From a virus: 28,480 bases of DNA. Shown here piece after piece: positions 3-22,414 of this stretch (position 1 is the stretch's first letter; each line of letters begins with the position of its first letter). The stretch is from the IMG/VR virus record IMGVR_UViG_3300036832_001713, positions 1-28,480 of that record; one strand, given 5' to 3'. The notes below the pieces were generated by a model. That model did not search any database, had not been told where the DNA came from, and worked only from the letters and a program-made list of their open reading frames with translations. The position numbers and the translations under genes are program-made.

Positions 3-818
3 AGTTTATTAGGTTCATTAATGCCTGATATTGATGAAAGGATTGGTAAGTGGAGAAATTGTGCCGTTCCAGTTCCCGATTGGGGATGCTGGGTGGCAGC
101 AACCTATCACCCTAGTTATGTTATGCGTGAAGAAAAGAAGCCTGAAGTTGAAGTTATCTGGAAGTCAGATATTGAACGTGCGTTAAAGCTATTGGAACGA
201 CCACGACCAAAGCCTGAGGATTTGCGTAAAAAGGTTGTTATTCTCAGGACTGAAGAAGAGATACTAGCAGCCCTAAATAGGGTCTCTCGTCGTGGTGGTG
301 GCTTGTTTTCCTTTGATTATGAAACCACCGGTTTAAAGGCAATCCTACATGGTGTAGTTTGTGCATCCTTTGCCATATCTGCTGATCGTGCTTACGCATT
401 TATGCTTGATAACGCATCGATTCGCGTAGTGGAAGCATGGCATAATATCTTATCGGATAGCCGTATTGGAAAAATATCGCACAACCTTCGTTTTGAACAG
501 GAATATTCGAAAGAGCATTTTGGTGTGACTTCAATAAACTGGAAATGGGACTCAATGTTATGTGCACACATTCTCGATAACCGACCAGGTATATGTGGAT
601 TAAAAGTGCAAGCTTTCTTGAACTTTGGGGTAAAGCCTTACGATACCGTTATCGGACCTTACCTAAAATCTATTGACGATAAGGACCCTCGATCACCCAA
701 TCGTATATATGAATTTATTGATCGTTATGGTCAAGATGAATGCTTGGTTTACTGTGGTATCGACTCCTTAATCACCTTTAGACTTGCTAAGAAACAAATG
801 ATGGAAATACAGGGATGA
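3..818 (+). CDS. DNA polymerase I family, N-terminal part: end of uracil-DNA glycosylase domain plus 3'-5' exonuclease (partial at left edge)
   Basis: The reading frame is open to the left edge, so the gene starts outside the window; the ATG at 21 is internal. The first ~45 residues contain WVAATYHPSYVMR, which matches the HPSY motif near the end of family 4 uracil-DNA glycosylases, a domain known to be fused to phage family A polymerases. A DnaQ-like proofreading exonuclease follows: ExoI FDYETTGL (D and E metal ligands), ExoII around HNLRFEQEY, ExoIII YCGID (Y-x3-D). The protein stops right after the exonuclease domain; thumb, palm and fingers are missing and are found in the gene at 1483. 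Its TGA overlaps the ATG of the endonuclease gene (ATGA at 815-818). Exonuclease assignment is firm; the glycosylase is inferred from its tail only. Confidence 0.9.
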   Translation, partial: SLLGSLMPDIDERIGKWRNCAVPVPDWGCWVAATYHPSYVMREEKKPEVEVIWKSDIERALKLLERPRPKPEDLRKKVVILRTEEEILAALNRVSRRGGGLFSFDYETTGLKAILHGVVCASFAISADRAYAFMLDNASIRVVEAWHNILSDSRIGKISHNLRFEQEYSKEHFGVTSINWKWDSMLCAHILDNRPGICGLKVQAFLNFGVKPYDTVIGPYLKSIDDKDPRSPNRIYEFIDRYGQDECLVYCGIDSLITFRLAKKQMMEIQG

Positions 819-1483
819 TTACACATACCATTTATCATATTCCAGGACGTAAAGTGGGCTGTACGAAAAATCTTGAATATAGGATGAGAGTTTATGAATG
901 GGCAGAAGGAGCATCTCCTGAAATTGAGATCTTGGAAGAACTGCACGACAAAACAGATAAAGAGGCTGGAGATATTGAATGGCAATGGGCAGATAAATTT
1001 GGATATAGTCGAGGGGTCCATTATACGAATACGTTAGCGGCTATTAAATCGTCGGCAAATAGTAATAAGCATAGAGAAGCGGTTCGAAGAAATGGATTGT
1101 TGATGTATGAATTGGGTATTGGTATTCATTCTGTTGAATCACATACTAGAGCGGGTAGAATTGGTGGGCTTATAGCCGGTCGTAAGATTGTTGAATTGAG
1201 GCTTGGTATACATGGATTATCTTTTGAAAGAAGATCTGAAATTGGTGTGATAGCAGGCCGTATTGGCGGTCGAAAAGTTGTAGAATTAAAACATGGAATT
1301 CATGGATTACCTCCTAATCGTAAATCTGAGATTGCTAGAAAGGCTGGCTTATCTGGAGGTAAGAAAGGAGGAATGAAACAGTTAGGTATTTGTCCTCACT
1401 GTGGACATGAGAATAATCTAGCAAGTCTAGGACGTTGGCACTTTGGCAAGTGTAAGCGTCGCCCAATGGTACGGAGAACCTAA
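815..1483 (+). CDS. GIY-YIG-type (homing) endonuclease inserted between the two halves of the DNA polymerase
   Basis: 222 residues. The N-terminus has TIYHIPGRKVGCTKNL with an Arg shortly after, a compact variant of the GIY-YIG nuclease fold, and a Glu in EAGDIEWQW as candidate metal ligand. Residues ~112-188 hold two and a half copies of a ~28-31 residue Gly/Arg/Lys-rich repeat (GRIGG..GRK.VEL..GIHGL), similar to the modular DNA-binding repeats of phage homing enzymes. The C-terminus has a zinc-finger pattern, CPHCG ... HFGKC, typical of these endonucleases. It overlaps the exonuclease gene by 4 bp (ATGA) and its TAA overlaps the polymerase ATG (TAATG), so three polypeptides would be made from one message by coupled translation. 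Nuclease class is likely; actual homing activity is inferred. Confidence 0.82.
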   Translation: MITHTIYHIPGRKVGCTKNLEYRMRVYEWAEGASPEIEILEELHDKTDKEAGDIEWQWADKFGYSRGVHYTNTLAAIKSSANSNKHREAVRRNGLLMYELGIGIHSVESHTRAGRIGGLIAGRKIVELRLGIHGLSFERRSEIGVIAGRIGGRKVVELKHGIHGLPPNRKSEIARKAGLSGGKKGGMKQLGICPHCGHENNLASLGRWHFGKCKRRPMVRRT

Positions 1484-2862
1484 TGAATCTATTAGATGCC
1501 TATAATCTACTGCATACCGGGGCAATCACCCTTGCCGAGGTAGAGGAAAGGGGTATCTGTATTGATGTTGAATATTGTAAAGATAGGATAAAATGGATTG
1601 ATCTTAAATCAAAGTTAAGTGAACACCGGTTTAAACAGAGCAAACTGTATGCAGCCTGGATTGCGAGGTTTCCAAAGATCAGTTATGGTAGTCATCCCCA
1701 GTTAAGGGCTGTATTGTATGCGGACCTAAAAGTAAAACCGTTTCGCAAAACCGAAAAGGATGAAGATAGTGTAGATGAAGAATCCTTACGGCAAACTAAC
1801 ATTGATGGGATTGAAGATCTATTAGGAATGCGTCGATACAAGAAGATTAGAGACGTTTTAAGTCAATTCCTACGGTATCAGGTTGACGGCTTTTTATACC
1901 CGAACTTCTTGTTACACACGGTAGCAACATATCGTTCTTCTAGTTCCGGTCCTAATATGCAGAATACGCCAAAACGCGATAAGGAGTCTATGGACATCTG
2001 TCGTAAGGCTATTATTCCTAGAAAGGGGTATAGGCTTCTAGAGGTGGACTTTAGTGGATTAGAAGTCAATATTGCAGCCTGTTACCACAAAGATCCCGTA
2101 ATGATAGATTACCTCAATGATCCTACATCAGATATGCACGCAGATACGGCACTAGATCTATTTCTCCTAAAGCGTAAGAATACTGAAGTCCGTAAGTTAG
2201 CAAACTTTGGGACATTGCGTCAGGCAAGCAAGAATGGTTTTGTATTTCCCGAATTTTATGGTGATTACTACGAATCCTGTGCACATAATATCGCCGTGTC
2301 CTGGTGTAAGCTCCCCCGTACAGGAGCATGGCGTGACCATCACGGTATTGAGTTTGATGGGATGCCTATCGCTCGACATTTTGCCAGTCAGGATATTGAA
2401 TCACTTAGTGATTTTGCCGATCATGTCAAAAAGGTTGAAGATGATTTCTGGCAACGCAGATTTAAGGTTTATGCAGCCTGGCGTAAGAACTGGTATAGCG
2501 AGTATCAGAAAACCGGATTCTTTGATATGAAGACCGGATTTCGATGTGCAGGGGTAATGGCGCGTAATGCGGTTGTTAACTATCCGGTGCAAGGCGCCGC
2601 GTTTCACGTATTATTATGGTGCTTGATTCGCATGGTCGAGCGGATGCGAGGTTGGCGTAGTGGGGTTATTGGTGAGATTCACGACTCAGGTATTATCGAG
2701 GCACACCCGGATGAGTTTGATAATGTTGTTTCCCTTGTTCAGCAGATTTGTACAGTAGAAGTTATGCGTGAGTGGCCCTGGCTTATCGTTCCCCTTAAAG
2801 TGGAAGTAATGGCTAGTAAGGTGGATGGGAACTGGGCTGAGATGGAGGAGGTACATGGCTGA
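1483..2862 (+). CDS. DNA polymerase I family, polymerase domain (separate gene)
   Basis: 459 residues that begin exactly where a continuous family A polymerase would continue after its exonuclease (AEVEERGICIDVEY matches the start of the thumb region). TYRSSSSGPNMQNTP corresponds to the conserved T-x-R-LSS-x-PN-x-QN-P stretch. Motif A is VDFSGLEV (Asp189), the fingers O-helix region is KNGFVFPEFYGDYY, and motif C is IHDSGII (His400-Asp401), so both catalytic aspartates are present. There is no exonuclease domain in this gene. The start is fixed by the TAATG overlap with the endonuclease gene. Together with the upstream gene product it probably forms the replicative polymerase by non-covalent association, as known for split phage polymerases; that assembly is inference. 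Confidence 0.95.
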   Translation: MNLLDAYNLLHTGAITLAEVEERGICIDVEYCKDRIKWIDLKSKLSEHRFKQSKLYAAWIARFPKISYGSHPQLRAVLYADLKVKPFRKTEKDEDSVDEESLRQTNIDGIEDLLGMRRYKKIRDVLSQFLRYQVDGFLYPNFLLHTVATYRSSSSGPNMQNTPKRDKESMDICRKAIIPRKGYRLLEVDFSGLEVNIAACYHKDPVMIDYLNDPTSDMHADTALDLFLLKRKNTEVRKLANFGTLRQASKNGFVFPEFYGDYYESCAHNIAVSWCKLPRTGAWRDHHGIEFDGMPIARHFASQDIESLSDFADHVKKVEDDFWQRRFKVYAAWRKNWYSEYQKTGFFDMKTGFRCAGVMARNAVVNYPVQGAAFHVLLWCLIRMVERMRGWRSGVIGEIHDSGIIEAHPDEFDNVVSLVQQICTVEVMREWPWLIVPLKVEVMASKVDGNWAEMEEVHG

Positions 2863-11884: not shown

Positions 11885-12334
11885 ATGTTCTCTGTGATCA
11901 AACGTTATGGTCACGAAGAGGGTTTCTCCGTGGCCTTTCGGCAGTGGAAAGCCAACCACTCCCATTGCCATTTTGTTCACGGTTACGCTATTGCCCTGGA
12001 GTTTCAGTTTGCTGCTGAAACACTAGATGATAAGAACTGGGTGTTTGACTTTGGTAACTTGAAAGATCTGAAAGAATGGTTAAAGGACAACTTTGACCAT
12101 AAGACTCTTGTGGCAAGAAATGATCCTGGTATGGCTTGGTTCGCTGAAGCCCATATGCAAGGACTTCTCGATTTAAAGGTAGTAGACGAGATTAGTTGTG
12201 AAAAGTTTGCCGAGATGGCTTTTAACTTTGCTAATGATTTGTTAAAAAGCACGACATGTCATCCCAGGGTACGACTAGTATCCGTAAAGGTATCTGAACA
12301 TGCAGGAAACACCGCTATCCATGAAGCCTCGTAA
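11885..12334 (+). CDS. queD: 6-carboxytetrahydropterin synthase-like protein (QueD / PTPS family)
   Basis: 149 residues if started at ATG 11885; AAGG at 11873-11876 fits this start better than the ATG at 11879 or GTG at 11876. WVFDFGNLK and FDHKTL are family hallmarks of the QueD/6-pyruvoyltetrahydropterin synthase fold, and Cys28 lies at the catalytic-Cys position before HGY. The protein is expected to make 6-carboxytetrahydropterin on the way to 7-deazaguanine. Oddities: the zinc-ligand positions AAH and HGH of enterobacterial QueD are AF and HGY here, although extra His (NHSHCH) are nearby. QueE is two genes downstream, supporting the pathway call. The last 35 bp overlap the next gene. Confidence 0.82.
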   Translation: MFSVIKRYGHEEGFSVAFRQWKANHSHCHFVHGYAIALEFQFAAETLDDKNWVFDFGNLKDLKEWLKDNFDHKTLVARNDPGMAWFAEAHMQGLLDLKVVDEISCEKFAEMAFNFANDLLKSTTCHPRVRLVSVKVSEHAGNTAIHEAS

Positions 12335-12746
12335 AGTCTATATTTCGTGGAATGGCGTTGTTGACGCCTGCTCCGGTTTAATAGATAACCTGCCTCCTGG
12401 CTTTCTAGGTATTGTTCCTGTTGCTAGGGGTGGGTTGGTACCGGCAACAATCATCTCCTATAAGTTAGATCTACCGATTATTGATCTAACTTATGTTGAA
12501 CATCGACCTATAAAGGCAAGTTATGGGATATTGGTTGTAGATGATGTATGTGATACGGGTAAGACATTTGTTAGACTTCGGGATACTTGGCCGGAAGCAA
12601 CATTTGCTGCTCCATTTGTGAAACCCAGGGGAATGGATCATTGTGATCATTGGTACACAGAAGTAGAGCAAGATGACTGGCTTGTGTTTCCTTGGGCTCC
12701 AAACGATGAGGTAAACCTGATCAGGGGGATAAGCAATGCCGGATAA
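12300..12746 (+). CDS. Purine-type phosphoribosyltransferase
   Basis: 148 residues. The PRPP-binding loop VVDDVCDTGKTF (two Asp then DTGKT) and the upstream PVARGGLVPA loop are characteristic of type I phosphoribosyltransferases, most like xanthine/guanine enzymes. ATG 12300 has AAGG about nine bases upstream; ATG 12321 is the alternative and would remove seven residues. It lies between QueD- and QueE-like genes, overlapping both, so it may supply or recycle a purine nucleotide for 7-deazaguanine or dNTP synthesis. The substrate cannot be read from the sequence. Confidence 0.85.
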   Translation: MQETPLSMKPRKVYISWNGVVDACSGLIDNLPPGFLGIVPVARGGLVPATIISYKLDLPIIDLTYVEHRPIKASYGILVVDDVCDTGKTFVRLRDTWPEATFAAPFVKPRGMDHCDHWYTEVEQDDWLVFPWAPNDEVNLIRGISNAG

Positions 12747-13446
12747 GATCCTTATTTCCGAGATTTTTGGAAATACATTGCAGGGAGAAGGATTTCTTGC
12801 AGGTCAATCCTCACATTTTATTCGCACTGCTGGTTGTGACTATCGTTGTAGTTGGTGCGATTCTATGCACGCTGTTGATCCACTCGTAATTAAACAGACT
12901 GCCTCTAGGCTTACACCTAAGGAAATTGTTGATAAGATACTTGCTTTACCAAAGGCAAGGTGGGTAACCATCTCCGGTGGGGATCCCGTCGCCTGGGATC
13001 TGACCCAGGTCATTTTAACTTTAAAGATGCAGCATTTGTTTAAACTTGCCGTTGAGACACAAGGTTCGATATGGCATGATTGGTTAGAATATTGTGATCT
13101 TGTTACAGTTAGCCCCAAACCACCCTCCTCAGGTATGCAAGATAGATTAGATCCCGCTGTTCTGCAAAAGTATTGGGCCCGCTTGCGGGCCCGTATGGTG
13201 TTAAAGATAGTGATATTTGATGAGGCAGATCTGGATTGGGCAGAACGGATTCGCAATTTTCTACCTGACGTTACTTTGTACTTGTCATCTGGGACTAAAC
13301 AGGGTTATGGTGACGATGTAGAAATGAGTGTATTACTAACTTATAGATGGTTGGCTGGTGAAGTGATCAAACGTCCAAAGTTTGTTAATGCTACAGTACT
13401 ACCACAGCTTCACGTTTTACTATGGGGACATGAGCTTGGTCGTTAG
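12736..13446 (+). CDS. queE: 7-carboxy-7-deazaguanine synthase (QueE), radical SAM
   Basis: 236 residues; AGGGGGA precedes ATG 12736. EIFGNTLQGEGFLAG is the typical QueE N-terminus, and AGCDYRCSWCD gives Cys34-x3-Cys38-x2-Cys41 for the 4Fe-4S cluster. TISGGDPVAWD is the SAM-binding GGxP-like strand, and ETQGS follows. It converts 6-carboxytetrahydropterin to 7-carboxy-7-deazaguanine, so it acts directly after the QueD-like product. Neither QueC, FolE nor a DNA transglycosylase (DpdA) is visible in the window; whether the product goes to DNA modification or to tRNA is open. Confidence 0.93.
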   Translation: MPDKILISEIFGNTLQGEGFLAGQSSHFIRTAGCDYRCSWCDSMHAVDPLVIKQTASRLTPKEIVDKILALPKARWVTISGGDPVAWDLTQVILTLKMQHLFKLAVETQGSIWHDWLEYCDLVTVSPKPPSSGMQDRLDPAVLQKYWARLRARMVLKIVIFDEADLDWAERIRNFLPDVTLYLSSGTKQGYGDDVEMSVLLTYRWLAGEVIKRPKFVNATVLPQLHVLLWGHELGR

Positions 13447-13645
13447 TTATCTAGCACCAATGGATGCCTTTGACCGGTTACATGTAAGAATTAGAAAATT
13501 GATTAATGATGCACCAATTGGTTTACCACACCAACAGATTTATCAATTGTTAACGTATCAGTCACAGTTTGGGCCTAGTGCGGCTGAAGCGCTGTTAAAG
13601 AGTTACTTTAGTCAGCACTTTCCAAACTATAGGTTTAAAGACTAG
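13430..13645 (+). CDS. Small protein of unknown function (71 aa)
   Basis: ATG 13430 overlaps the end of queE by 17 bp; the longer frame from 13382 lies deeper in queE. ATG 13460 (MDAFDRLHVRIRK) is the alternative start. The sequence looks helical (FDRLHVRIRKLIND; HQQIYQLLTYQ; AAEALLKSYFSQHF), with a shape like a small winged or helical DNA-binding domain but no firm match. It fills the space between queE and nrdJ. Confidence 0.55.
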   Translation: MSLVVSYLAPMDAFDRLHVRIRKLINDAPIGLPHQQIYQLLTYQSQFGPSAAEALLKSYFSQHFPNYRFKD

Positions 13646-13665
13646 ACCCACAAGGAATCCGTAAA

Positions 13666-16620
13666 ATGAAGGTTGAGCGTGTGTATACAAAGCCTGGTGT
13701 TCCTGTAGAAGCTCAACTTGAGTGGAAGCGGGTTGACGTTTTGGTAAAGGATGGCAAGACCGGGAAAACCATCTTTGCTCAATCTGATGTCGAAGTACCC
13801 GTACACTGGTCGGATAATGCCGCCCAGATTCTAGCTAGTAAGTATTTTCGCAAGGCTGGTATACCACTTCATACTATTCCCTGTAGTGAACTTGAAATAC
13901 CTGATTGGCTGCGTCGCTCCACTGCTAGTTATACCGAGTTTGGTTTCGAGACATCAGCAAAACAGGTGTTTCATCGGCTAGCAGGTTGTTGGACCTATTG
14001 GGGATGGAAGCACAACTACTTTAATGGAGAAGATGCCCTAGTCTTTTATGATGAATGTTATATGATGTTGGCCATGCAGGTTGCCGCACCTAATTCCCCA
14101 CAATGGTTTAATACAGGACTGCATTGGGCCTATGGTATTGCGGGACCGGATTCCGGGCAATGGGCAATGCACGAAGGTGATGAAACAAGTGGTGAAAAGC
14201 CATACCCATTTCTGACGCTAAACTCCTACGAACGTCCACAACCCCATGCCTGCTTTTTGACCCCCGTTACTGATGATCTGGTCAATGAGGGTGGGATTAT
14301 GGATCTGTGGGTGCGAGAGGCCCGCATCTTTAAGCATGGATCCGGATCGGGTGTTAATGTTAGTGATTTGCGGAGCAAGGGTGAAAAGTTGTCCGGTGGT
14401 GGTGCGGCTTCCGGTGTTATGTCTTGGTTGGAGATAGGTGATCGTGCGGCAGGAGCGATCCAGAGTGGAGGAACTACACGGCGTGCAGCAAAGATGGTGA
14501 TCTTAGATATGGATCACCCGGAGATTGAGGAGTTTATTGATTGGAAGGTACGCGAGGAAAGTAAGGCTGCGGCAATGTATGTGGGTAGTCAGCTGATGCG
14601 AAATTATTATATGGGTATCGGTGACGCACGCAAAGACCCGTATATTGCTGTCCCTAGCGCAACGATTGATAGGTTTCATCATGAAATCGAACCCGAACTG
14701 TTTGGTATTGGTTGGGAAGAAGAAGCGATTAGGTCTGTTAGTGGTCAGAATAGCAACAATTCAGTCCGGATTACCGACGAATTTATGAAGATGATTGATG
14801 GTGAACCTGAAGAACCCGAATCCTGGGATTTGATCTCGCGTACGACAAATGAGGTTGTTAAATCGCTTGAACCTGGTGTATTGTGGCATAAGATATGTCG
14901 AGCCGCTTGGGCTAGTGCGGATCCTGGTGTTCTGTTTCATGATACGATCAACTATTGGAATACTTGTCCTAATGATGGTGAGATCCGTACTACAAACCCG
15001 TGTTCGGAATTTCACTTTTTAGATGGTAATGCCTGTAACCTGGCTTCACTTCGTCTAACGGCATTTTTGCAGGATGATGGTGAATTTGATGTTAATCGTT
15101 TTTGTCATGCAGCACGAATATGGACTATGGTACTTGATATTAGTGTAACGATGGCCGCCTTCCCGACAAAAGAGTTTGCTCAAGCTGCTAATGACTATCG
15201 AACATTAGGTTTAGGTTATGCGGATCTCGGTGGTCTGCTGATGCGAATGACCTACCCGTATGATAGTGAGGAAGGTCGTAATACCGCGGCTGCGGTTACT
15301 GCACTAATGCACTTTCAAGCCTACAAGACCAGTAATGAAATGGCTGAAGCACTTGCTCCCTTCCCTCGTTGGGAGGTGAACAAACAACCAATGGAAGATG
15401 TAATAGCCCTGCATTATAATCAGATCAGAGGTATAACATCAAACCACATTTGGTTAAAGGTTGTTGAATTGAATGAGTCGATAGACTTAGAAAGGGGGTT
15501 CCGCAATGCGCAAGTTACACTGCTGGCCCCGACCGGTACTATTAGTTTTGTCATGGATTGTGATACCACTGGCATTGAACCTGACTATAGCCTGGTTAAG
15601 CATAAAAGCCTGGCAGGTGGCGGGTCAATGGACATCGTCAACCAAGGTATTGAACCAACTCTATATCGATTGAGTTATTCCCCAAATGAAGTAAATAGTA
15701 TTGTAGAGCATGTAACCCGTACTGGTGGCCTACAGGATTGTGACTTGTTAAGAAAAGAACATTTGCCAATCTTTGCCTGTGCAAATGAGATTGATCCGAT
15801 GGGTCATGTAAAGATGGTGGCTGCGGTGCAACCTTATCTGTCCGGTGCAGTTAGTAAAACGATTAACCTGCCCAAGGAGGCAACAGTAGAAGATGTTAGT
15901 GAGGTGTATTTGGGTGCCTGGCGTATGGGGTTAAAGTCTGTAGCCCTATATCGGGATGGATCTAAACTTACCCAGCCTCTGTCTTCTGTACAGAAGCCGA
16001 CAAAAACCTGGAATTCAACTACCCGTACTTTGCCTACCCGTGAGATGCTACCTTGGCGGCGTAGTCGTTCGTATACACAAAAAGTAAAGATTGACGGGCA
16101 ATCCGTATATTTGCATGTTGGGGAATATAATGATGGACGGCCCGGTGAAATCTTTCTTGAACTGGCGCATCAAGGATCAACCCTTCGTGCTATGGGTAAT
16201 TTGTTTGCTATTGCTGTTAGTGTGGGTCTTCAGCATGGTATACCAGTGGAGCAGTACATTAAGAATTTTCTGCACACCAAGTTTGAACCCGCGGGGATTG
16301 TCGAGGGTCATAATCACATAAAGATGGTTAGCTCGATTGCTGACTATATCGCCCGCGAATTAGCGATCACCTATTGTGGTCGGTATGACCTGGCAAATAT
16401 CAAGCCTGATGAGGCTATCAATATCATGGGGGCTGCTGAAGTTATTGCTTCTCAGATGAAAGAATTGAGTCAAAAGATTGGTGCTATTGGTTTTGATCTT
16501 ACCTCTCACTCACACCAGATAACCGGTAATTTCTGTCCACAATGTCATAACGCAGCCCTCGTTAAGGCAGGCACGTGTGAGTACTGTCGGGAGTGTAGTT
16601 ATAACACCGGATGTGCTTGA
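13666..16620 (+). CDS. nrdJ: Ribonucleotide reductase class II, adenosylcobalamin-dependent (NrdJ)
   Basis: 984 residues. Diagnostic parts in order: NSPQWFNTGLHWAYG; HACFLTP with the first redox Cys; GSGSGVNVSDLRSKGE and GGGAASGVMSW (substrate/phosphate binding); TNPCSEFHF with the NPCSE radical region; LLAPTGTISFVMDCDTTG; and a C-terminal Cys-rich tail (CPQCHN ... CEYCREC). It makes deoxynucleotides from ribonucleotides without needing oxygen, using B12. No NrdB-like subunit is nearby, as expected for class II. AAGGAATCC precedes ATG 13666. This feeds the polymerase and fits with the neighbouring purine genes. Confidence 0.95.
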   Translation: MKVERVYTKPGVPVEAQLEWKRVDVLVKDGKTGKTIFAQSDVEVPVHWSDNAAQILASKYFRKAGIPLHTIPCSELEIPDWLRRSTASYTEFGFETSAKQVFHRLAGCWTYWGWKHNYFNGEDALVFYDECYMMLAMQVAAPNSPQWFNTGLHWAYGIAGPDSGQWAMHEGDETSGEKPYPFLTLNSYERPQPHACFLTPVTDDLVNEGGIMDLWVREARIFKHGSGSGVNVSDLRSKGEKLSGGGAASGVMSWLEIGDRAAGAIQSGGTTRRAAKMVILDMDHPEIEEFIDWKVREESKAAAMYVGSQLMRNYYMGIGDARKDPYIAVPSATIDRFHHEIEPELFGIGWEEEAIRSVSGQNSNNSVRITDEFMKMIDGEPEEPESWDLISRTTNEVVKSLEPGVLWHKICRAAWASADPGVLFHDTINYWNTCPNDGEIRTTNPCSEFHFLDGNACNLASLRLTAFLQDDGEFDVNRFCHAARIWTMVLDISVTMAAFPTKEFAQAANDYRTLGLGYADLGGLLMRMTYPYDSEEGRNTAAAVTALMHFQAYKTSNEMAEALAPFPRWEVNKQPMEDVIALHYNQIRGITSNHIWLKVVELNESIDLERGFRNAQVTLLAPTGTISFVMDCDTTGIEPDYSLVKHKSLAGGGSMDIVNQGIEPTLYRLSYSPNEVNSIVEHVTRTGGLQDCDLLRKEHLPIFACANEIDPMGHVKMVAAVQPYLSGAVSKTINLPKEATVEDVSEVYLGAWRMGLKSVALYRDGSKLTQPLSSVQKPTKTWNSTTRTLPTREMLPWRRSRSYTQKVKIDGQSVYLHVGEYNDGRPGEIFLELAHQGSTLRAMGNLFAIAVSVGLQHGIPVEQYIKNFLHTKFEPAGIVEGHNHIKMVSSIADYIARELAITYCGRYDLANIKPDEAINIMGAAEVIASQMKELSQKIGAIGFDLTSHSHQITGNFCPQCHNAALVKAGTCEYCRECSYNTGCA

Positions 16621-18060: not shown

Positions 18061-20009
18061 TAGAATGGGATGTCCTCGTTACGATCTAGAAGGGGCAGGC
18101 CCTGCTCCACCTGGATCTTTTTGACTGGTTGCGGCTGCGGGGGCTGCGGAATTAATACGGGCTCCGGTGCACGGACCCGTGGTGCGATTGAATCCAAAGT
18201 CTTCTCAATAATCTCCTGCTTCTCGATGATAGTTGCGGCCATGTAGCTGTCAACGCTATCGTCAAAAACTAGATGCTGGACTAGAACGTTACCGTGCTGC
18301 CCAATTCGGTGCAGGCGGTCTTCAGCTTGGCTGATGTTGCCCGGAACCCAATCGAGTTCGGCAAACACTACGTGCTGTGCTGCGGTCAGTGTGATACCAA
18401 CCCCCGCTGCCTGAATACCCCCGATAAACAACCGGCAGGCCGGATCGTTCTGGAACCGATCGACTTGCGTGATCCGGTCGCTTGGCTTGACTTGGCCAGT
18501 GACTAGGGCGGCTGTCGGAAACGCCTCCTTGAGAGCGTTTGCCACATCGTGGTGATGGACAAACACCACGACCTTTTCCTCAGCCTCTAGGCACTCGGTT
18601 AGATGCTCGATAACCTGAGGCACCTTGGCTACTGCCGTATCGTGGCGTAGTGTGGACATCTCTTCAAAGGCAATTGACTTGGAATTATGCAGCTCGAGCA
18701 CCGCTTCCCGGTAACCGTCTTTGTCACCGTGGGAGCGTGCCCTCTCTGCGGCTTCCTCTGCTGCCTGCATAGCCTGCTCGTACCGGCGGAATACTTGTCT
18801 CTCGTTTCGTACGGCGGCTATTGCGGCTGCCCCGGTGGGCGGCACTATAATAATCTGGCGGCGCTTAGGCGGGAGCTCCTTGAGAACATCGGCCTTTAAC
18901 CGGCGCACCATAAACGAACTACGCAGTTTCTGCTGGAGTTCCGGCAGGTTGGACGCACCACTATATTCCCAACCCCAGGATGCCTTATAGCCGGCGCAAT
19001 ACTGGCAGATATAATCTACAAAGTTTTTACCAAGCCCTTTAGGATCAATCGATTTAAGGATAGGCCAAAGCTCAGCGGGTCGATTAACAATTGGTGTTCC
19101 CGTCATAAAGACCCGTTTGGTTGCCTTGATTGGGAAGACCCTCTTCTCACGACTGGCATTCCACTTGCCGAGCAAAGCAATGGTCCGCTGGGCCTTGGAA
19201 TTCTTAATGTAATGGCACTCGTCAACGATCATCAGGTCCCATTGTACCTGGTCGATCTCCGCACGCCACTTCTTGAGGATATCGTAGTTGATGATGACGA
19301 TATCGGCGGTTGGGAATTGACCATTGGCGATCTTAACTGTTGTCGGTCGCACGAGCCATTTGTTCATCTCGCGCAACCAGTTGATCTTGAGTGTGGCCGG
19401 GCAAATCACGAGCACTTTTTGGATGCTCGGATCGGCATTGATAAGCCCAATCGCTTGGATCGTCTTGCCTAGGCCCATCTCGTCCGCGAGTAGGAAGCCT
19501 TCCCGGTTTCGATTGGTCATATAGGCGATACCTGCAAGCTGATAGGGCAGATAGCTGAGCCCCTCGGGTGCAGGCACCTTGATAAAGCCCTCGGTGGCCC
19601 GGCTGGCCTCAATGGCTGCGTTCGCCTGGCGTTCGGCCTCAGCACCAATAGCCGGGTCGAGCTTGGCGGCGATCATCGGGTCGGTGGTCTTCCAAAGCTT
19701 TTCGTCCCAATTGAACTTGAACCCAGCCGACTTTACAATCTCCTTGGTTTCGTATGTATACGGGAATCGCGCGATATAGTGCAGTCCCTCTTTGGTGACC
19801 TTAATCATCTGACTTGCCTTGATTAGAGCCTGGCGCTTGTGTTCCCCGGCTAACCACGCTGCGTAAGAGTGGCTGTGGGTAGGATATCTTCCTACCTTAC
19901 CGGCAAAACCCACATCGAACGCATCCTGGAGAACGTCCCTACGACCCGTCGCAGGTCTACCCTGGCAGAATAGATCAAATGTGGATTGCTGGGATGGGGT
20001 GAGCTTCAC
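18060..20009 (-). CDS. SNF2-family (SMARCAL1-like) DNA helicase/translocase
   Basis: 649 residues from GTG 20009 (AGCAGG six bases upstream). The two-domain motor is complete: DEMGLGKT (residues 176-183), CPATLKINW, VDECHYIKN (Asp263-Glu264), MTGTPI, VFVHHHDVA, and the motif VI region QAEDRLHRIGQ. N-terminal to it, residues ~24-58 resemble the short ribosome-modulation-factor fold (DAFDVGFAGKVG ... YAAWLAGEH) and residues ~78-118 (FPYTYETKEIVKSAGFKFNW) resemble the HARP-like DNA-binding element of SMARCAL1 relatives. It would remodel forks or branched DNA. Promoter and operator at 20050-20101 lie upstream, then the repeat arrays. Confidence 0.92.
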   Translation of the reverse strand: MKLTPSQQSTFDLFCQGRPATGRRDVLQDAFDVGFAGKVGRYPTHSHSYAAWLAGEHKRQALIKASQMIKVTKEGLHYIARFPYTYETKEIVKSAGFKFNWDEKLWKTTDPMIAAKLDPAIGAEAERQANAAIEASRATEGFIKVPAPEGLSYLPYQLAGIAYMTNRNREGFLLADEMGLGKTIQAIGLINADPSIQKVLVICPATLKINWLREMNKWLVRPTTVKIANGQFPTADIVIINYDILKKWRAEIDQVQWDLMIVDECHYIKNSKAQRTIALLGKWNASREKRVFPIKATKRVFMTGTPIVNRPAELWPILKSIDPKGLGKNFVDYICQYCAGYKASWGWEYSGASNLPELQQKLRSSFMVRRLKADVLKELPPKRRQIIIVPPTGAAAIAAVRNERQVFRRYEQAMQAAEEAAERARSHGDKDGYREAVLELHNSKSIAFEEMSTLRHDTAVAKVPQVIEHLTECLEAEEKVVVFVHHHDVANALKEAFPTAALVTGQVKPSDRITQVDRFQNDPACRLFIGGIQAAGVGITLTAAQHVVFAELDWVPGNISQAEDRLHRIGQHGNVLVQHLVFDDSVDSYMAATIIEKQEIIEKTLDSIAPRVRAPEPVLIPQPPQPQPVKKIQVEQGLPLLDRNEDIPF

Positions 20010-20049
20010 GTGCGCCTGCTATCAAAAGCCTCTGTGGCCTTCATGTTAC

Positions 20050-20101
20050 ATATAAGCATTTTGCGTTAGATTGCAAGCCCTGGGTGTCAACTTTTTTGCG
20101 C
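20050..20101 (-). promoter_or_regulatory. Shared-design promoter and operator, copy 1 (helicase)
   Basis: Read on the - strand: GCGCAAAAAAGTTGAC (20101-20086), then TTGCAA (20076-20071), exactly 12 bp, and TGCTTATAT (20058-20050). The same elements at the same 21-bp distance occur at 23263-23314 and 25783-25833, each just upstream of a - strand gene. TTGCAA and TTATAT/TATATG act like -35 and extended -10 boxes. The upstream element is an incomplete form of the GCAAA-N4-TTTGC palindrome. The first base of the helicase GTG lies about 40 bp downstream. Confidence 0.7.
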
Positions 20102-20111
20102 TCTCAGGCCC

Positions 20112-20392
20112 TGGTTCTCTCGCGGGTTATGGCTCGCTCCAGCTGATTGGTGCTCTCTGCTGGTATGGCTCACTTACACGCTGTGGTTCTCTCCACGCTC
20201 TTGGCTCGGTTCGAAGTCGTGGCACTCTCCAAGTCCATGGCTCACTCGATTTACGTGGCTCTCTCGTTTACTTTGGCTCGCACGGATGATGTGGTTCACT
20301 CGCTAGGTAGGGCTCGCTCATCAGCTTTGGTGCTCTCAGTGGGTACTGGCTCACTCGCTTGTCCTGGTACTCTCACAACTAGTGGCTTACTT
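20112..20392. repeat. 18-bp alternating repeat array, block 1 (16 units)
   Basis: Motif starts on the + strand: 20112, 20130, 20148, 20166, 20184, 20202, 20220, 20238, 20256, 20274, 20292, 20310, 20328, 20347, 20365, 20383. Fourteen of fifteen steps are exactly 18 bp, one is 19. Units alternate between A-type TGG[T/C]NC[T/A]CTC (for example TGGTTCTCTC, TGGTGCTCTC) and B-type TGGCTC[G/A]CTC. The 8-bp spacers (gcgggtta, cagctgat, tgctggta ...) are unrelated to one another. On the - strand, the direction of the genes, the units read GAGNGARCCA-like. The block fills the gap between the stop of the membrane peptide (20387) and the helicase promoter. No gene is visible inside. Confidence 0.93.
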
Positions 20393-20470
20393 TAACGTTG
20401 CTAACCATAACATTATACCGCCTACCCACACAATCATCCCAACAAACCCTAATACGTCCGTATCGATCAT
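20387..20470 (-). CDS. Membrane micropeptide between array blocks 1 and 2 (27 aa)
   Basis: ATG at 20470 with AGGGA about eight bases upstream (just outside block 2). The product has an acidic N-terminus (MIDTDVLG) and then one hydrophobic helix (FVGMIVWVGGIMLWLATL) ending in Lys. Its TAA lies inside the last motif of block 1. Although very short, it has the ribosome site, membrane segment and exact fit into the only non-array DNA between blocks 1 and 2. Function unknown; similar one-helix peptides recur in this phage. Confidence 0.5.
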   Translation of the reverse strand: MIDTDVLGFVGMIVWVGGIMLWLATLK

Positions 20471-20488
20471 AATCGCTTCCCTATTCAG

Positions 20489-20840
20489 TGGTCCACTCTT
20501 TATCTATGGCTCGCTCTTTTGTGATGGTACTCTATACATCTGGCTCACTCCCGACTTTTGGTCCTCTCTGTCCTGATGGTTCACTCGAAGTTTGTGGTTC
20601 TCTTCAGCGTTCTGGCTCGCTCTCCATTAATGGTACTTGCTCGAATTTTATGGCTCGCTCCCTGGTCTTGGTGCTCTCTATTTTTGTGGCTCGCTTGACT
20701 TCTCAGGTTCTCTCAAATGCTTTGGCTCGCTCACATATTGTGGTACTCTCTGAAGCAATGGCTCACTCCCGGGCTTTGGTACTCTCACACCTTGTGGCTC
20801 GATCTTATCTCATGGCCCTCTCGTGCTGTGTGGCTATTTC
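20489..20840. repeat. 18-bp alternating repeat array, block 2 (20 units)
   Basis: Motif starts: 20489, 20507, 20525, 20541, 20559, 20577, 20595, 20613, 20631, 20651, 20669, 20687, 20705, 20723, 20741, 20759, 20777, 20795, 20813, 20831. Seventeen of nineteen steps are 18 bp; one is 16 and one 20. Each unit is the A or B variant in strict alternation (for example TGGTACTCTC then TGGCTCACTC). Spacers are different again. The last motif (TGGCTATTTC) overlaps the stop codon of the IS110-like gene (20834-20836). The reading frame of the motif changes at the 16- and 20-bp steps, which argues against a protein-coding repeat. No gene occupies this ~345-bp stretch. Confidence 0.93.
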
Positions 20841-21811
20841 TTTCTTGGTGCAGGTGGAATAACGTGTGCGTGACCTAGATGTTCCATTGGGTAAGGTGCA
20901 GGTGGTGGGTAACCAAACGTTTGGGTAAACCACTCAACATGCAGATGTGCCAGAAATAGTTTGACTGCCCACCGCCGAGACATTGCATCAATGTGCCCCG
21001 GAGATAAAACACCCGAACTGTACCAACCATAGGCTTCGGTTTCCTTACCTACCTTTTTTGCCAATCCCAATGCACGTTCCCGATACTTGCCATCGCTATT
21101 CATTTTTTGGTACTTGGTCTTTTGTTCTTTATACAGGCGACCATAGTAGCACTCGGGACGCTTGTTAAACTTCATAAAGCTTTGGCCAGCCTTCCAGCAT
21201 AGCGACTTGAACTGAGCATTAAAAGGGCGTAGTTGATTCTTTTCCCAAGGTATCTGACCGTCACCCGCCCAACCCGCATATTGCCAGATATGACCAACAG
21301 TAGGACAAGAGATGATGGGTTGGAAAACATGCTTGGGTGGCTTTTTGCCATTACGCTTGTACTTGCTTTTTGCTGACTGTCGGTACTTGCAGTCATCCTC
21401 ACTACGACCGTGACATACTGCACACCACATACCCATATAGATGTGGGCTAGAATACCAGCACTGATAACAGGACCGATACCATAGATCTCCCGCATCCAG
21501 GCACCCATCGGATGTTTTTGCGTATACTGATCGAGGGCGGCCTTGATACCTTCTTCCAGTACCTCGAAGCTGGTTCCCAGCCATGCAAGGACAGGGTTTC
21601 CAGGTTCGTCATCCGCTTGTGATCGCATCTGGGCATCTGCCCTGATCCGGTCGTGCTGCATATCGTAATAGGTGGATACCAGATATCGGGCTTGGACGTC
21701 ACCCATTTTCCCTGCGGCAATCCGCAGTTCACGACCCAGTCGTCTTACTGCGACACTAAAGTCGTCGATAAAGTTAGGGTCGGTTGCCTCGTCTTCGAAA
21801 TCGTCAGTCAT
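20834..21811 (-). CDS. IS110-transposase C-terminal-like protein (HhH / Transposase_20-type), nuclease half missing
   Basis: 325 residues from ATG 21811, with AAAGGAAC about seven bases upstream; a longer frame to 21844 runs into block 3. Residues 110-120 (YGIGPVISAGI) are a helix-hairpin-helix like the IPGIGPxTA segment of IS110/IS116 transposases, followed by HIWQYAGW and, near the end, HIDAMSRRWAVKLFLAHLH, as in the C-terminal Tnp domain. An inserted Cys cluster (C130, C133, C141) may bind zinc. The N-terminal RuvC-like DEDD domain is absent and no Ser-Gly follows the YAG strand where the catalytic Ser of IS110 enzymes is expected. I recall relatives in phages and prophages of unknown function. 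Probably DNA- or RNA-binding rather than an active transposase. Confidence 0.7.
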   Translation of the reverse strand: MTDDFEDEATDPNFIDDFSVAVRRLGRELRIAAGKMGDVQARYLVSTYYDMQHDRIRADAQMRSQADDEPGNPVLAWLGTSFEVLEEGIKAALDQYTQKHPMGAWMREIYGIGPVISAGILAHIYMGMWCAVCHGRSEDDCKYRQSAKSKYKRNGKKPPKHVFQPIISCPTVGHIWQYAGWAGDGQIPWEKNQLRPFNAQFKSLCWKAGQSFMKFNKRPECYYGRLYKEQKTKYQKMNSDGKYRERALGLAKKVGKETEAYGWYSSGVLSPGHIDAMSRRWAVKLFLAHLHVEWFTQTFGYPPPAPYPMEHLGHAHVIPPAPRKK

Positions 21812-21836
21812 TGTAGTTCCTTTCGCTCTTGTATTA

Positions 21837-22009
21837 TGGTTCACTCGATTGAAGTGGCCCGCTCATTAGCTTTGGTGCTCTCACGCCATATGGCTCACTC
21901 CCATACTTTGGTTCTCTTCCCTGATACTGGCTCGCTTGCCTCGCATGGTACTCTCGTTTGTAATGGCTCGCTCTCGTAGTATGGTTCTCTCTGACGACGT
22001 GGCTTCTTA
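21837..22009. repeat. 18-bp alternating repeat array, block 3 (10 units)
   Basis: Motif starts: 21837, 21855, 21873, 21891, 21909, 21928, 21946, 21964, 21982, 22000; eight of nine steps are 18 bp, one is 19. A and B variants alternate as in the other blocks; the last is degenerate (TGGCTTCTTA). The spacer attagctt before TGGTGCTCTC differs by one base from atcagctt in block 1 at the equivalent position, the only near-match among spacers that I found. The block lies between the stop of the 54-aa gene (22022) and the ribosome site of the IS110-like gene. Confidence 0.93.
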
Positions 22010-22021
22010 TTATACGTTACG

Positions 22022-22186
22022 TTACTTTCTAATTTCATCGCAATCTTGACCAACTTTTGGTCTGTTTTCAAACCGTTTAGCCGTCATAACAAAGGCGTGG
22101 TCTTCGTAGACATACCACCCGGATTCAAATCGGCGACCATTGACCTCGAAGTCCTTTTCATAGTACCGTGCGATCTTCTTTGCCAT
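22022..22186 (-). CDS. Small basic protein of unknown function (54 aa)
   Basis: ATG at 22186 with GGAG seven bases upstream. The protein begins MAKKIARYYEKDFEVNGRRF and continues ESGWYVYEDHAFVMTAKRF, a compact beta-rich charged sequence resembling small phage proteins. It ends 13 bp before block 3, so block 3 is its 3' flank. No known domain. Real by ribosome site and placement; function unknown. Confidence 0.6.
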   Translation of the reverse strand: MAKKIARYYEKDFEVNGRRFESGWYVYEDHAFVMTAKRFENRPKVGQDCDEIRK

Positions 22187-22225
22187 TGTGGTCTCCTGAC
22201 TTACCAGGGGAAGGGAGGCGGTGTG

Positions 22226-22414
22226 TTAGTTTTCCCGTATCCAGGTTCCATCCGGACTTCGAACCCACCGGATGTCGGTAAATGGTTCTCGAGTCGATCG
22301 GGTTGTTGGGTGCTCCTCCTCTTGTAAGTTTGGTGTTGTGGTATCGTTATCGGGCCACCAATGTCTAAACCATTGAAAGCGCCGCTGTCGTCTCATCCAT
22401 TGTTCGCGGTTCAT
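22226..22414 (-). CDS. Small Arg/Trp-rich protein of unknown function (62 aa)
   Basis: AGGAGA lies six bases before ATG 22414. The N-terminal third is strongly basic and aromatic (REQWMRRQRRFQWFRHWW), then the sequence turns acidic and polar (PDNDTTTPNLQEEEHP) and ends WVRSPDGTWIREN. The basic, tryptophan-rich start could bind nucleic acid or membrane surfaces. No family recognised. Confidence 0.6.
   Translation of the reverse strand: MNREQWMRRQRRFQWFRHWWPDNDTTTPNLQEEEHPTTRSTREPFTDIRWVRSPDGTWIREN

What the first reader, a model, noticed from the sequence alone, without database searches (positions are those of the whole stretch)
20112..22009. 46-unit array with an exact 18-bp period, two strictly alternating motifs and unrelated 8-bp spacers
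Three blocks (16, 20 and 10 units) carry a 10-bp motif beginning TGG. 39 of the 43 within-block steps are exactly 18 bp (the others 16, 19, 19 and 20). Motifs alternate A (TGGTNCTCTC) and B (TGGCTCRCTC) through all blocks, so the true period is 36 bp. Spacers show almost no similarity, so it is not a CRISPR or an ordinary tandem duplication; motif sequence and spacing are under constraint while spacers drift. Steps of 16, 19 and 20 change the reading frame, arguing against a coding repeat. Possible roles are an origin or partition-type array bound cooperatively by a protein, or, since the blocks fill gaps between co-oriented genes, an RNA element read as GAGNGARCCA. I know no described system with this layout.
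Basis: seen in the sequence. Interest (0 to 1): 0.9.

Follow-up and report, generated by a model that had tools for sequence, protein, structure and literature searches.

The report
Phage TIGR-Tas guide-RNA arrays
The strange 18-bp array is a set of three phage-encoded TIGR guide-RNA arrays around their RNA-guided DNA-binding protein TasA, a system described in 2025 and ordinary in kind, but comparison with relatives shows that its guide units are kept letter for letter or replaced whole, which bears on how these arrays evolve.

Summary
In detail: 46 full repeats, 18-bp step, two alternating motifs. On the minus strand the motifs are GAGYGAGCCA ("edge") and GAGAGNACCA ("loop") with 8-nt spacers and half-edge repeats at block ends. 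The 325-aa gene between the blocks is a Tas protein: NCBIfam TIGR_Tas_endo 168 bits (cut-off 100); profile hits to solved TasR (3e-24) and TasH (7e-15); predicted fold matches TasH and TasR (Z 17-18.5). It lacks their N-terminal nuclease domain, so it is TasA. These are three TIGR arrays encoding about 23 tigRNAs of ~36 nt (TIGR-Tas, Faure et al. 2025). From about 1,450 tigRNAs in relatives: (1) an edge-repeat base pair covaries between the two ends of one tigRNA (5 clashes, 29 expected); (2) every array repeat within 3 kb of tas is on the tas strand; (3) between viruses with flanks 80-90% identical most units are replaced, but kept units are usually identical over all 16 spacer bases; (4) one isolate, KBS 96, has an exact tigRNA target in an apparent second prophage. 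Systematic target searches gave no signal, so (4) is only a lead.

The parts
21819..22009 (-).
   Evidence: hand-phased units; strand set by box C (CCA) and by tasA orientation
20834..21811 (-). tasA, 325 aa, Nop-domain Tas protein without N-terminal nuclease domain; ATG at 21811 (the 336-aa GTG start at 21844 lies inside array 1)
   Evidence: NCBIfam NF052498 167.8 bits, cut-off 100; PDB profile hits TasR 9MTY and TasH 21KL; fold Z 17-18.5
21817..21822 (-). Shine-Dalgarno-like AAGGAA, directly after the last half-edge of array 1 and 5 nt before the tasA ATG
   Evidence: sequence; inferred
20471..20840 (-). TIGR array 2 (second block), directly downstream of tasA: ten tigRNA units; the tasA stop TAG lies inside its first half-edge repeat
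20094..20392 (-). TIGR array 3 (first block): eight tigRNA units, ending in half-edge GAGCG
22009..22038 (-). promoter-like ATGAAA-18-TATAAT just upstream of array 1 (weak; promoter-like sites are about as frequent in shuffles)
   Evidence: 4 found, 2.3 +/- 1.7 expected

Best explanation
This is a TIGR-TasA system of an uncultivated phage. Three dual-repeat TIGR arrays flank and follow tasA and are read on the same strand, so the RNA is ...AGCCA-spacer A-GAGAGNACCA-spacer B-GAGYG.... The precursor is expected to be cut in the middle of each edge repeat into about 23 tigRNAs of ~36 nt, each held by a TasA dimer through the two CCA boxes. Spacers A and B (8 nt each) would pair with opposite strands of a 16-bp DNA site of the form A-rc(B). 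As TasA has no nuclease domain, the most likely effect is binding, bending and blocking of a gene or origin of a competing phage, prophage or the host. Shown here: array anatomy, Tas identity, strand coupling, covariation that supports the 36-nt RNA, and constraint on spacer pairs. Inferred from the published system: processing, dual-strand targeting. Inferred only: what the targets are.
For: Tas: NCBIfam TIGR_Tas_endo 167.8 bits, cut-off 100; single-sequence PDB hit is TasR 9MTY, E 6e-7; profile of 51 homologs hits TasR 2.9e-24, TasH 6.8e-15, IS621 1.4e-4; AF2 model pLDDT 85 matches TasH Z 17.3-18.5 and TasR Z 17.2, aligned from model residue 34-39, so the nuclease part is absent. Array: alternating 10-nt repeats, 8-nt spacers, 36-nt unit, half-edge repeats at ends, as described in PMC12045711. 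Coupling: of 63 viral loci picked by Tas alone, 54 have 36 as the best repeat period in the flanks and 3 have 34 or 37, against 4 of 85 control pieces; all 2,930 repeats within 3 kb of a tas gene are on the tas strand. RNA unit: edge position 4 of the following repeat pairs with edge position 7 of the preceding repeat: 5 C-A clashes in 1,136 tigRNAs, against 29.1 +/- 2.7 when shuffled within arrays and 41 if the two positions are taken from the same repeat. Spacer constraint: flanks 80-90% identical, 190 units: 29 identical in all 16 nt, 5 with one change, the rest mostly as unlike as in unrelated viruses.
Against: No RNA data for this locus. No rho-independent terminator was found after any of the three arrays, although TIGR arrays typically have one. 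The box D end reads GAG, not the UG of TasR arrays. No target was found for the window's own 23 units apart from one gap-2 match that is within chance.
Confidence: 0.97

Rival explanations
1. An origin- or partition-type array of DNA sites bound cooperatively by a protein.
For: Regular spacing; some relatives have a ParB-like gene beside tas.
Against: All repeats near tas lie on one strand, covariation across the ends of a 36-nt RNA unit, 16 spacer bases kept exactly in diverged viruses, and a Tas protein in place. No ParB-like gene was recognised beside tasA in the window.
Confidence: 0.01
2. An IS110-type transposon with a bridge RNA: the 325-aa protein is called 'transposase' in PHROGs.
For: PHROG_4285 'transposase' E 2.4e-37; distant similarity to IS621.
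Against: The match to TasR and TasH is far stronger; the model aligns only to the C-terminal part of IS621 (residues 125-320), not to its N-terminal part, where the DEDD catalytic domain lies (the domain's place is from knowledge of the family).
Confidence: 0.01
3. An array of a different RNA-guided phage system such as VIPR, or a CRISPR.
For: Short repeats with variable bases in a phage.
Against: VIPR RNAs are alternating GGY/NN motifs with a RAMP protein (PMC13142463); CRISPR repeats are 25-36 nt; PADLOC finds no defence-system match for the Tas protein.
Confidence: 0.005

Closest known systems
TIGR-TasA with dual-repeat arrays (Faure et al. 2025, PMC12045711), in particular loci with 10-nt repeats, some with tasParB
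   Same: Two alternating ~10-nt repeats, short spacers, ~36-nt unit, half-edge ends, arrays up- and downstream of a nuclease-less Nop-domain Tas protein, phage host.
   Different: 8-nt spacers (most described are 9; SpTIGR has 8), GAG instead of UG at box D, three arrays at one locus, no tasParB recognised, a 40-residue Cys/His-containing insert in TasA (about residues 124-165, low model confidence).
TIGR-TasR and TIGR-TasH nucleases (PDB 9MTY; 21KL and others)
   Same: Same Nop fold, same array logic.
   Different: Those carry an N-terminal RuvC or HNH nuclease domain; this one does not align with it.
IS110/IS621 bridge-RNA recombinases and box C/D snoRNPs
   Same: Distant Nop/RNA-binding domain similarity (IS621 Z 12.8; Nop5 1NT2 Z 6.3).
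   Different: No transposase domain, no bridge RNA, no K-turn.

Membership tests
TIGR-Tas (dual repeat) | Nop-domain Tas protein next to the array | tested here: met
   NF052498 above its cut-off; TasR/TasH by profile and by fold
TIGR-Tas (dual repeat) | two alternating 8-12-nt repeats with spacers of about 8-12 nt | tested here: met
   10-nt edge and loop repeats, 8-nt spacers
TIGR-Tas (dual repeat) | 36-nt unit bounded in the middle of edge repeats | tested here: met
   36 nt in 19 of 23 window units by sequence; covariation across unit ends in relatives. Processing itself not tested.
TIGR-Tas (dual repeat) | 5'- and 3'-truncated edge repeats at array ends | tested here: met
   all three arrays, one 3' end only partly recognisable
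TIGR-Tas (dual repeat) | rho-independent terminator after the array (typical) | tested here: not met
   no minus-strand terminator-like site in 19900-22400; the source calls it typical, not required
TIGR-Tas (dual repeat) | box C CCA at the 3' end of both repeats | tested here: met
   GAGYGAGCCA and GAGAGNACCA; in relatives edge and loop position 8-10 nearly invariant CCA (edge rows were selected for CCA, loop rows were not)
TIGR-Tas (dual repeat) | box D UG at the 5' end of the repeats | tested here: not met
   both repeats begin GAG; the source says that the motifs can diverge but covary between edge and loop, which holds here
TIGR-Tas (dual repeat) | array transcribed and processed to 36-nt RNAs bound by Tas; dual-strand DNA targeting | not testable with these tools
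   needs RNA sequencing and binding assays
TasA subtype | no N-terminal RuvC or HNH nuclease domain | tested here: met
   alignments to TasR start at chain residue 112 and to TasH at 64-66, at model residue 34-39
IS110 transposase | N-terminal DEDD catalytic domain | tested here: inconclusive
   aligned only with IS621 residues 125-320; only about 34 residues precede this part

The most novel reading that the evidence does not exclude
TIGR arrays of TasA phages are heritable libraries of 16-nt guide cassettes that are gained, lost and shuffled whole, and they silence early genes of rival temperate phages: in the isolate KBS 96 a prophage-borne tigRNA matches, without mismatch or gap, the start of an excisionase-like regulator gene in what looks like a second, co-resident prophage. 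This would give a natural target of a TIGR system, which the original study could not identify.
Probability: 0.3. Interest if true: 0.8.

Novelty: new member of a known kind. Interest (0 to 1): 0.45.

Why it matters
The system itself is known. Faure et al. name array turnover and natural targets as open questions. The retained units and the KBS 96 lead make both testable.

Tried and rejected
Targets: all A-rc(B) sites with gaps 0-2 for 1,243 units in 4.36 Mb of phage and prophage DNA gave 13 against 10, 5 and 7 in the three wrong geometries and about 8 expected from other gaps; no significant signal, and none in a unit's own contig (an apparent enrichment in the smaller set did not hold). Two units shared by 4-5 diverged viruses scanned in all IMG/VR: 48 and 9 matches in unrelated contexts, taken as chance. 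The KBS 96 target word scanned in IMG/VR: 33 matches in unrelated genes. Two units of Halomonas NO4 in its own genome: none. Relatives of the second KBS 96 prophage: none found. Tas in INPHARED phages and PLSDB plasmids by tblastn: none. Rfam and tRNA: none. Close relatives of the window by DNA: none; by its SNF2 helicase only two, 52 and 35% identical. Considered and rejected: coding repeat (frame-changing steps, stops), CRISPR, VIPR, partition sites.

Full report
OBSERVATION. The array is real and as described. Searches give 16, 20 and 10 full motifs, 39 of 43 steps of 18 bp, strict alternation of two motifs. The relaxed motif occurs 31 times in the window against 1.65 in randomised sequences.

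IDENTITY. Read on the minus strand the motifs are GAGYGAGCCA and GAGAGNACCA with 8-nt spacers. Between array 1 and array 2 lies a 325-aa gene on the same strand (20834-21811). It matches NCBIfam TIGR_Tas_endo at 167.8 bits, cut-off 100. Its only PDB sequence hit is 9MTY, the TasR complex, and a profile of 51 homologs hits TasR (2.9e-24), TasH (6.8e-15) and, weakly, IS621. An AlphaFold2 model (pLDDT 85) aligns with TasH and TasR at Z 17-18.5, IS621 at 12.8 and Nop5 at 6.3; the notes to that tool warn that helical models reach middling Z by chance, but the top rows are all Tas structures and agree with the sequence result. The alignments begin at model residue 34-39, after the HNH or RuvC part of the solved proteins, so this is the nuclease-less TasA. 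Faure et al. 2025 (PMC12045711) describe exactly this layout: alternating 8-12-nt edge and loop repeats, spacers of about 9 nt (8 in one system), 36-nt tigRNAs cut in the middle of edge repeats, half-edge repeats at array ends, arrays on one or both sides of tas.

ANATOMY. Array 1 (22009-21819) ends in the half-edge GAGCGA, followed at once by AAGGAA and the tasA ATG. The tasA stop codon lies inside the first half-edge of array 2 (20840-20471). Array 3 (20392-20094) follows after about 80 bp. Together they hold 23 units, 19 of them exactly 36 nt by sequence. There is a promoter-like site before array 1 but no terminator-like site after the arrays; promoter-like sites are about as common in shuffles.

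RELATIVES. The reverse, unbiased test: of 63 new viral loci chosen by Tas alone, 54 have 36 as the best repeat period, and 3 have 34 or 37, against 4 of 85 control pieces. In bacterial genomes 12 of 14 Tas loci showed an array-like period of 34-36 by eye and autocorrelation, including Halomonas NO4 and Acidobacteriaceae KBS 96. All 2,930 repeats within 3 kb of a tas gene are on its strand; 214 arrays lie downstream and 94 upstream. On fully read contigs 39 of 161 arrays are more than 3 kb from tas, up to 60 kb away, 13 of them on the other strand, so guides probably act in trans.

RNA UNIT. In the edge repeat, position 4 (C/T) and position 7 (G/A) can pair. If the RNA is cut in the middle of edge repeats, position 7 of one edge and position 4 of the next lie at the two ends of the same tigRNA. 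C-A clashes in that pairing: 5 of 1,136, against 29.1 +/- 2.7 when dealt anew within arrays, and 41 when both positions are taken from one repeat. This supports the extra edge pair reported for TasR, here in a TasA family, and argues for RNA as the functional form. Related sequences are not independent, but the within-array shuffle keeps array composition.

TURNOVER. Near-identical phages (98% or more) have identical arrays. At 80-90% flank identity (26 pairs, 190 units) 29 units are identical over all 16 spacer bases, 5 differ by one base, 6 by two to four, and the rest are about as unlike as units of unrelated viruses (0 of 2,930 unrelated comparisons at four or fewer). With neutral drift at the flank rate about one in ten surviving units would be unchanged (my estimate). 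So units are kept or replaced whole. In L094 and L123 three shared units stand in a different order. Sharing of only one spacer also occurs, nearly always in the same slot, A with A or B with B. The pairs come from a handful of clades and are not independent; recent recombination between viruses could also explain exact identity.

TARGETS. From the published rules a target reads A-rc(B) with a gap of 0-2 (orientation derived by me from the 8-nt 3' overhangs). Systematic search gave no signal, and none of the tested units matches its own contig. In the isolate KBS 96, one of six units (TAAAAGCA/TTCGATTC) has an exact, gapless site in its own 6.7-Mb genome (the other five none). By simple base counts a match for any of six units with gaps 0-2 is expected about 0.02-0.05 times (my estimate). 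The site lies about 25-40 nt inside an HTH_17/Cox-like excisionase-type gene, next to a divergent XRE-type repressor and near a gene whose product shares 58% identity over 124 aa with the replication protein of the TasA prophage. That looks like the early region of a second prophage, but only 3 kb could be read and no phage relative was found. I treat it as a lead.

VERDICT. A new member of a known kind. Confidence in the TIGR-TasA assignment 0.97. Function against rival phages is plausible and unproven.

Noticed in passing
L043:105-2306 (-): A TasA gene is interrupted in frame by an intein-like insert at the conserved ...LKTLC / WKIGESF... motif. Judged by eye only.
   Followed up: partly
window 21-2862: The family A DNA polymerase is split into two ORFs (21-818 and 1483-2862) with an ORF between them that looks like a GIY-YIG-type homing endonuclease (endonuclease judged by eye).
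   Followed up: no
window 12300-16620: QueE-like, xanthine phosphoribosyltransferase-like and B12-dependent ribonucleotide reductase genes next to each other.
   Followed up: no
L285 and ten other Tas loci: A ParB-like ORF in the tas neighbourhood, presumably the tasParB of Faure et al.; none recognised near tasA in the window.
   Followed up: partly
contigs of L125-L264 (G001, G003, G014, G017, G055, G059 and others): TIGR arrays dispersed over the phage genome, up to 60 kb from tas.
   Followed up: partly
window 20310-20347 and 21855-21891: Two units in different arrays share the loop and nearly the same spacer B (AAGCTGAT and AAGCTAAT) with different spacer A.
   Followed up: no
L415:1501-1516: Exact target of a KBS 96 prophage tigRNA inside an excisionase-like gene of an apparent second prophage.
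   Followed up: partly
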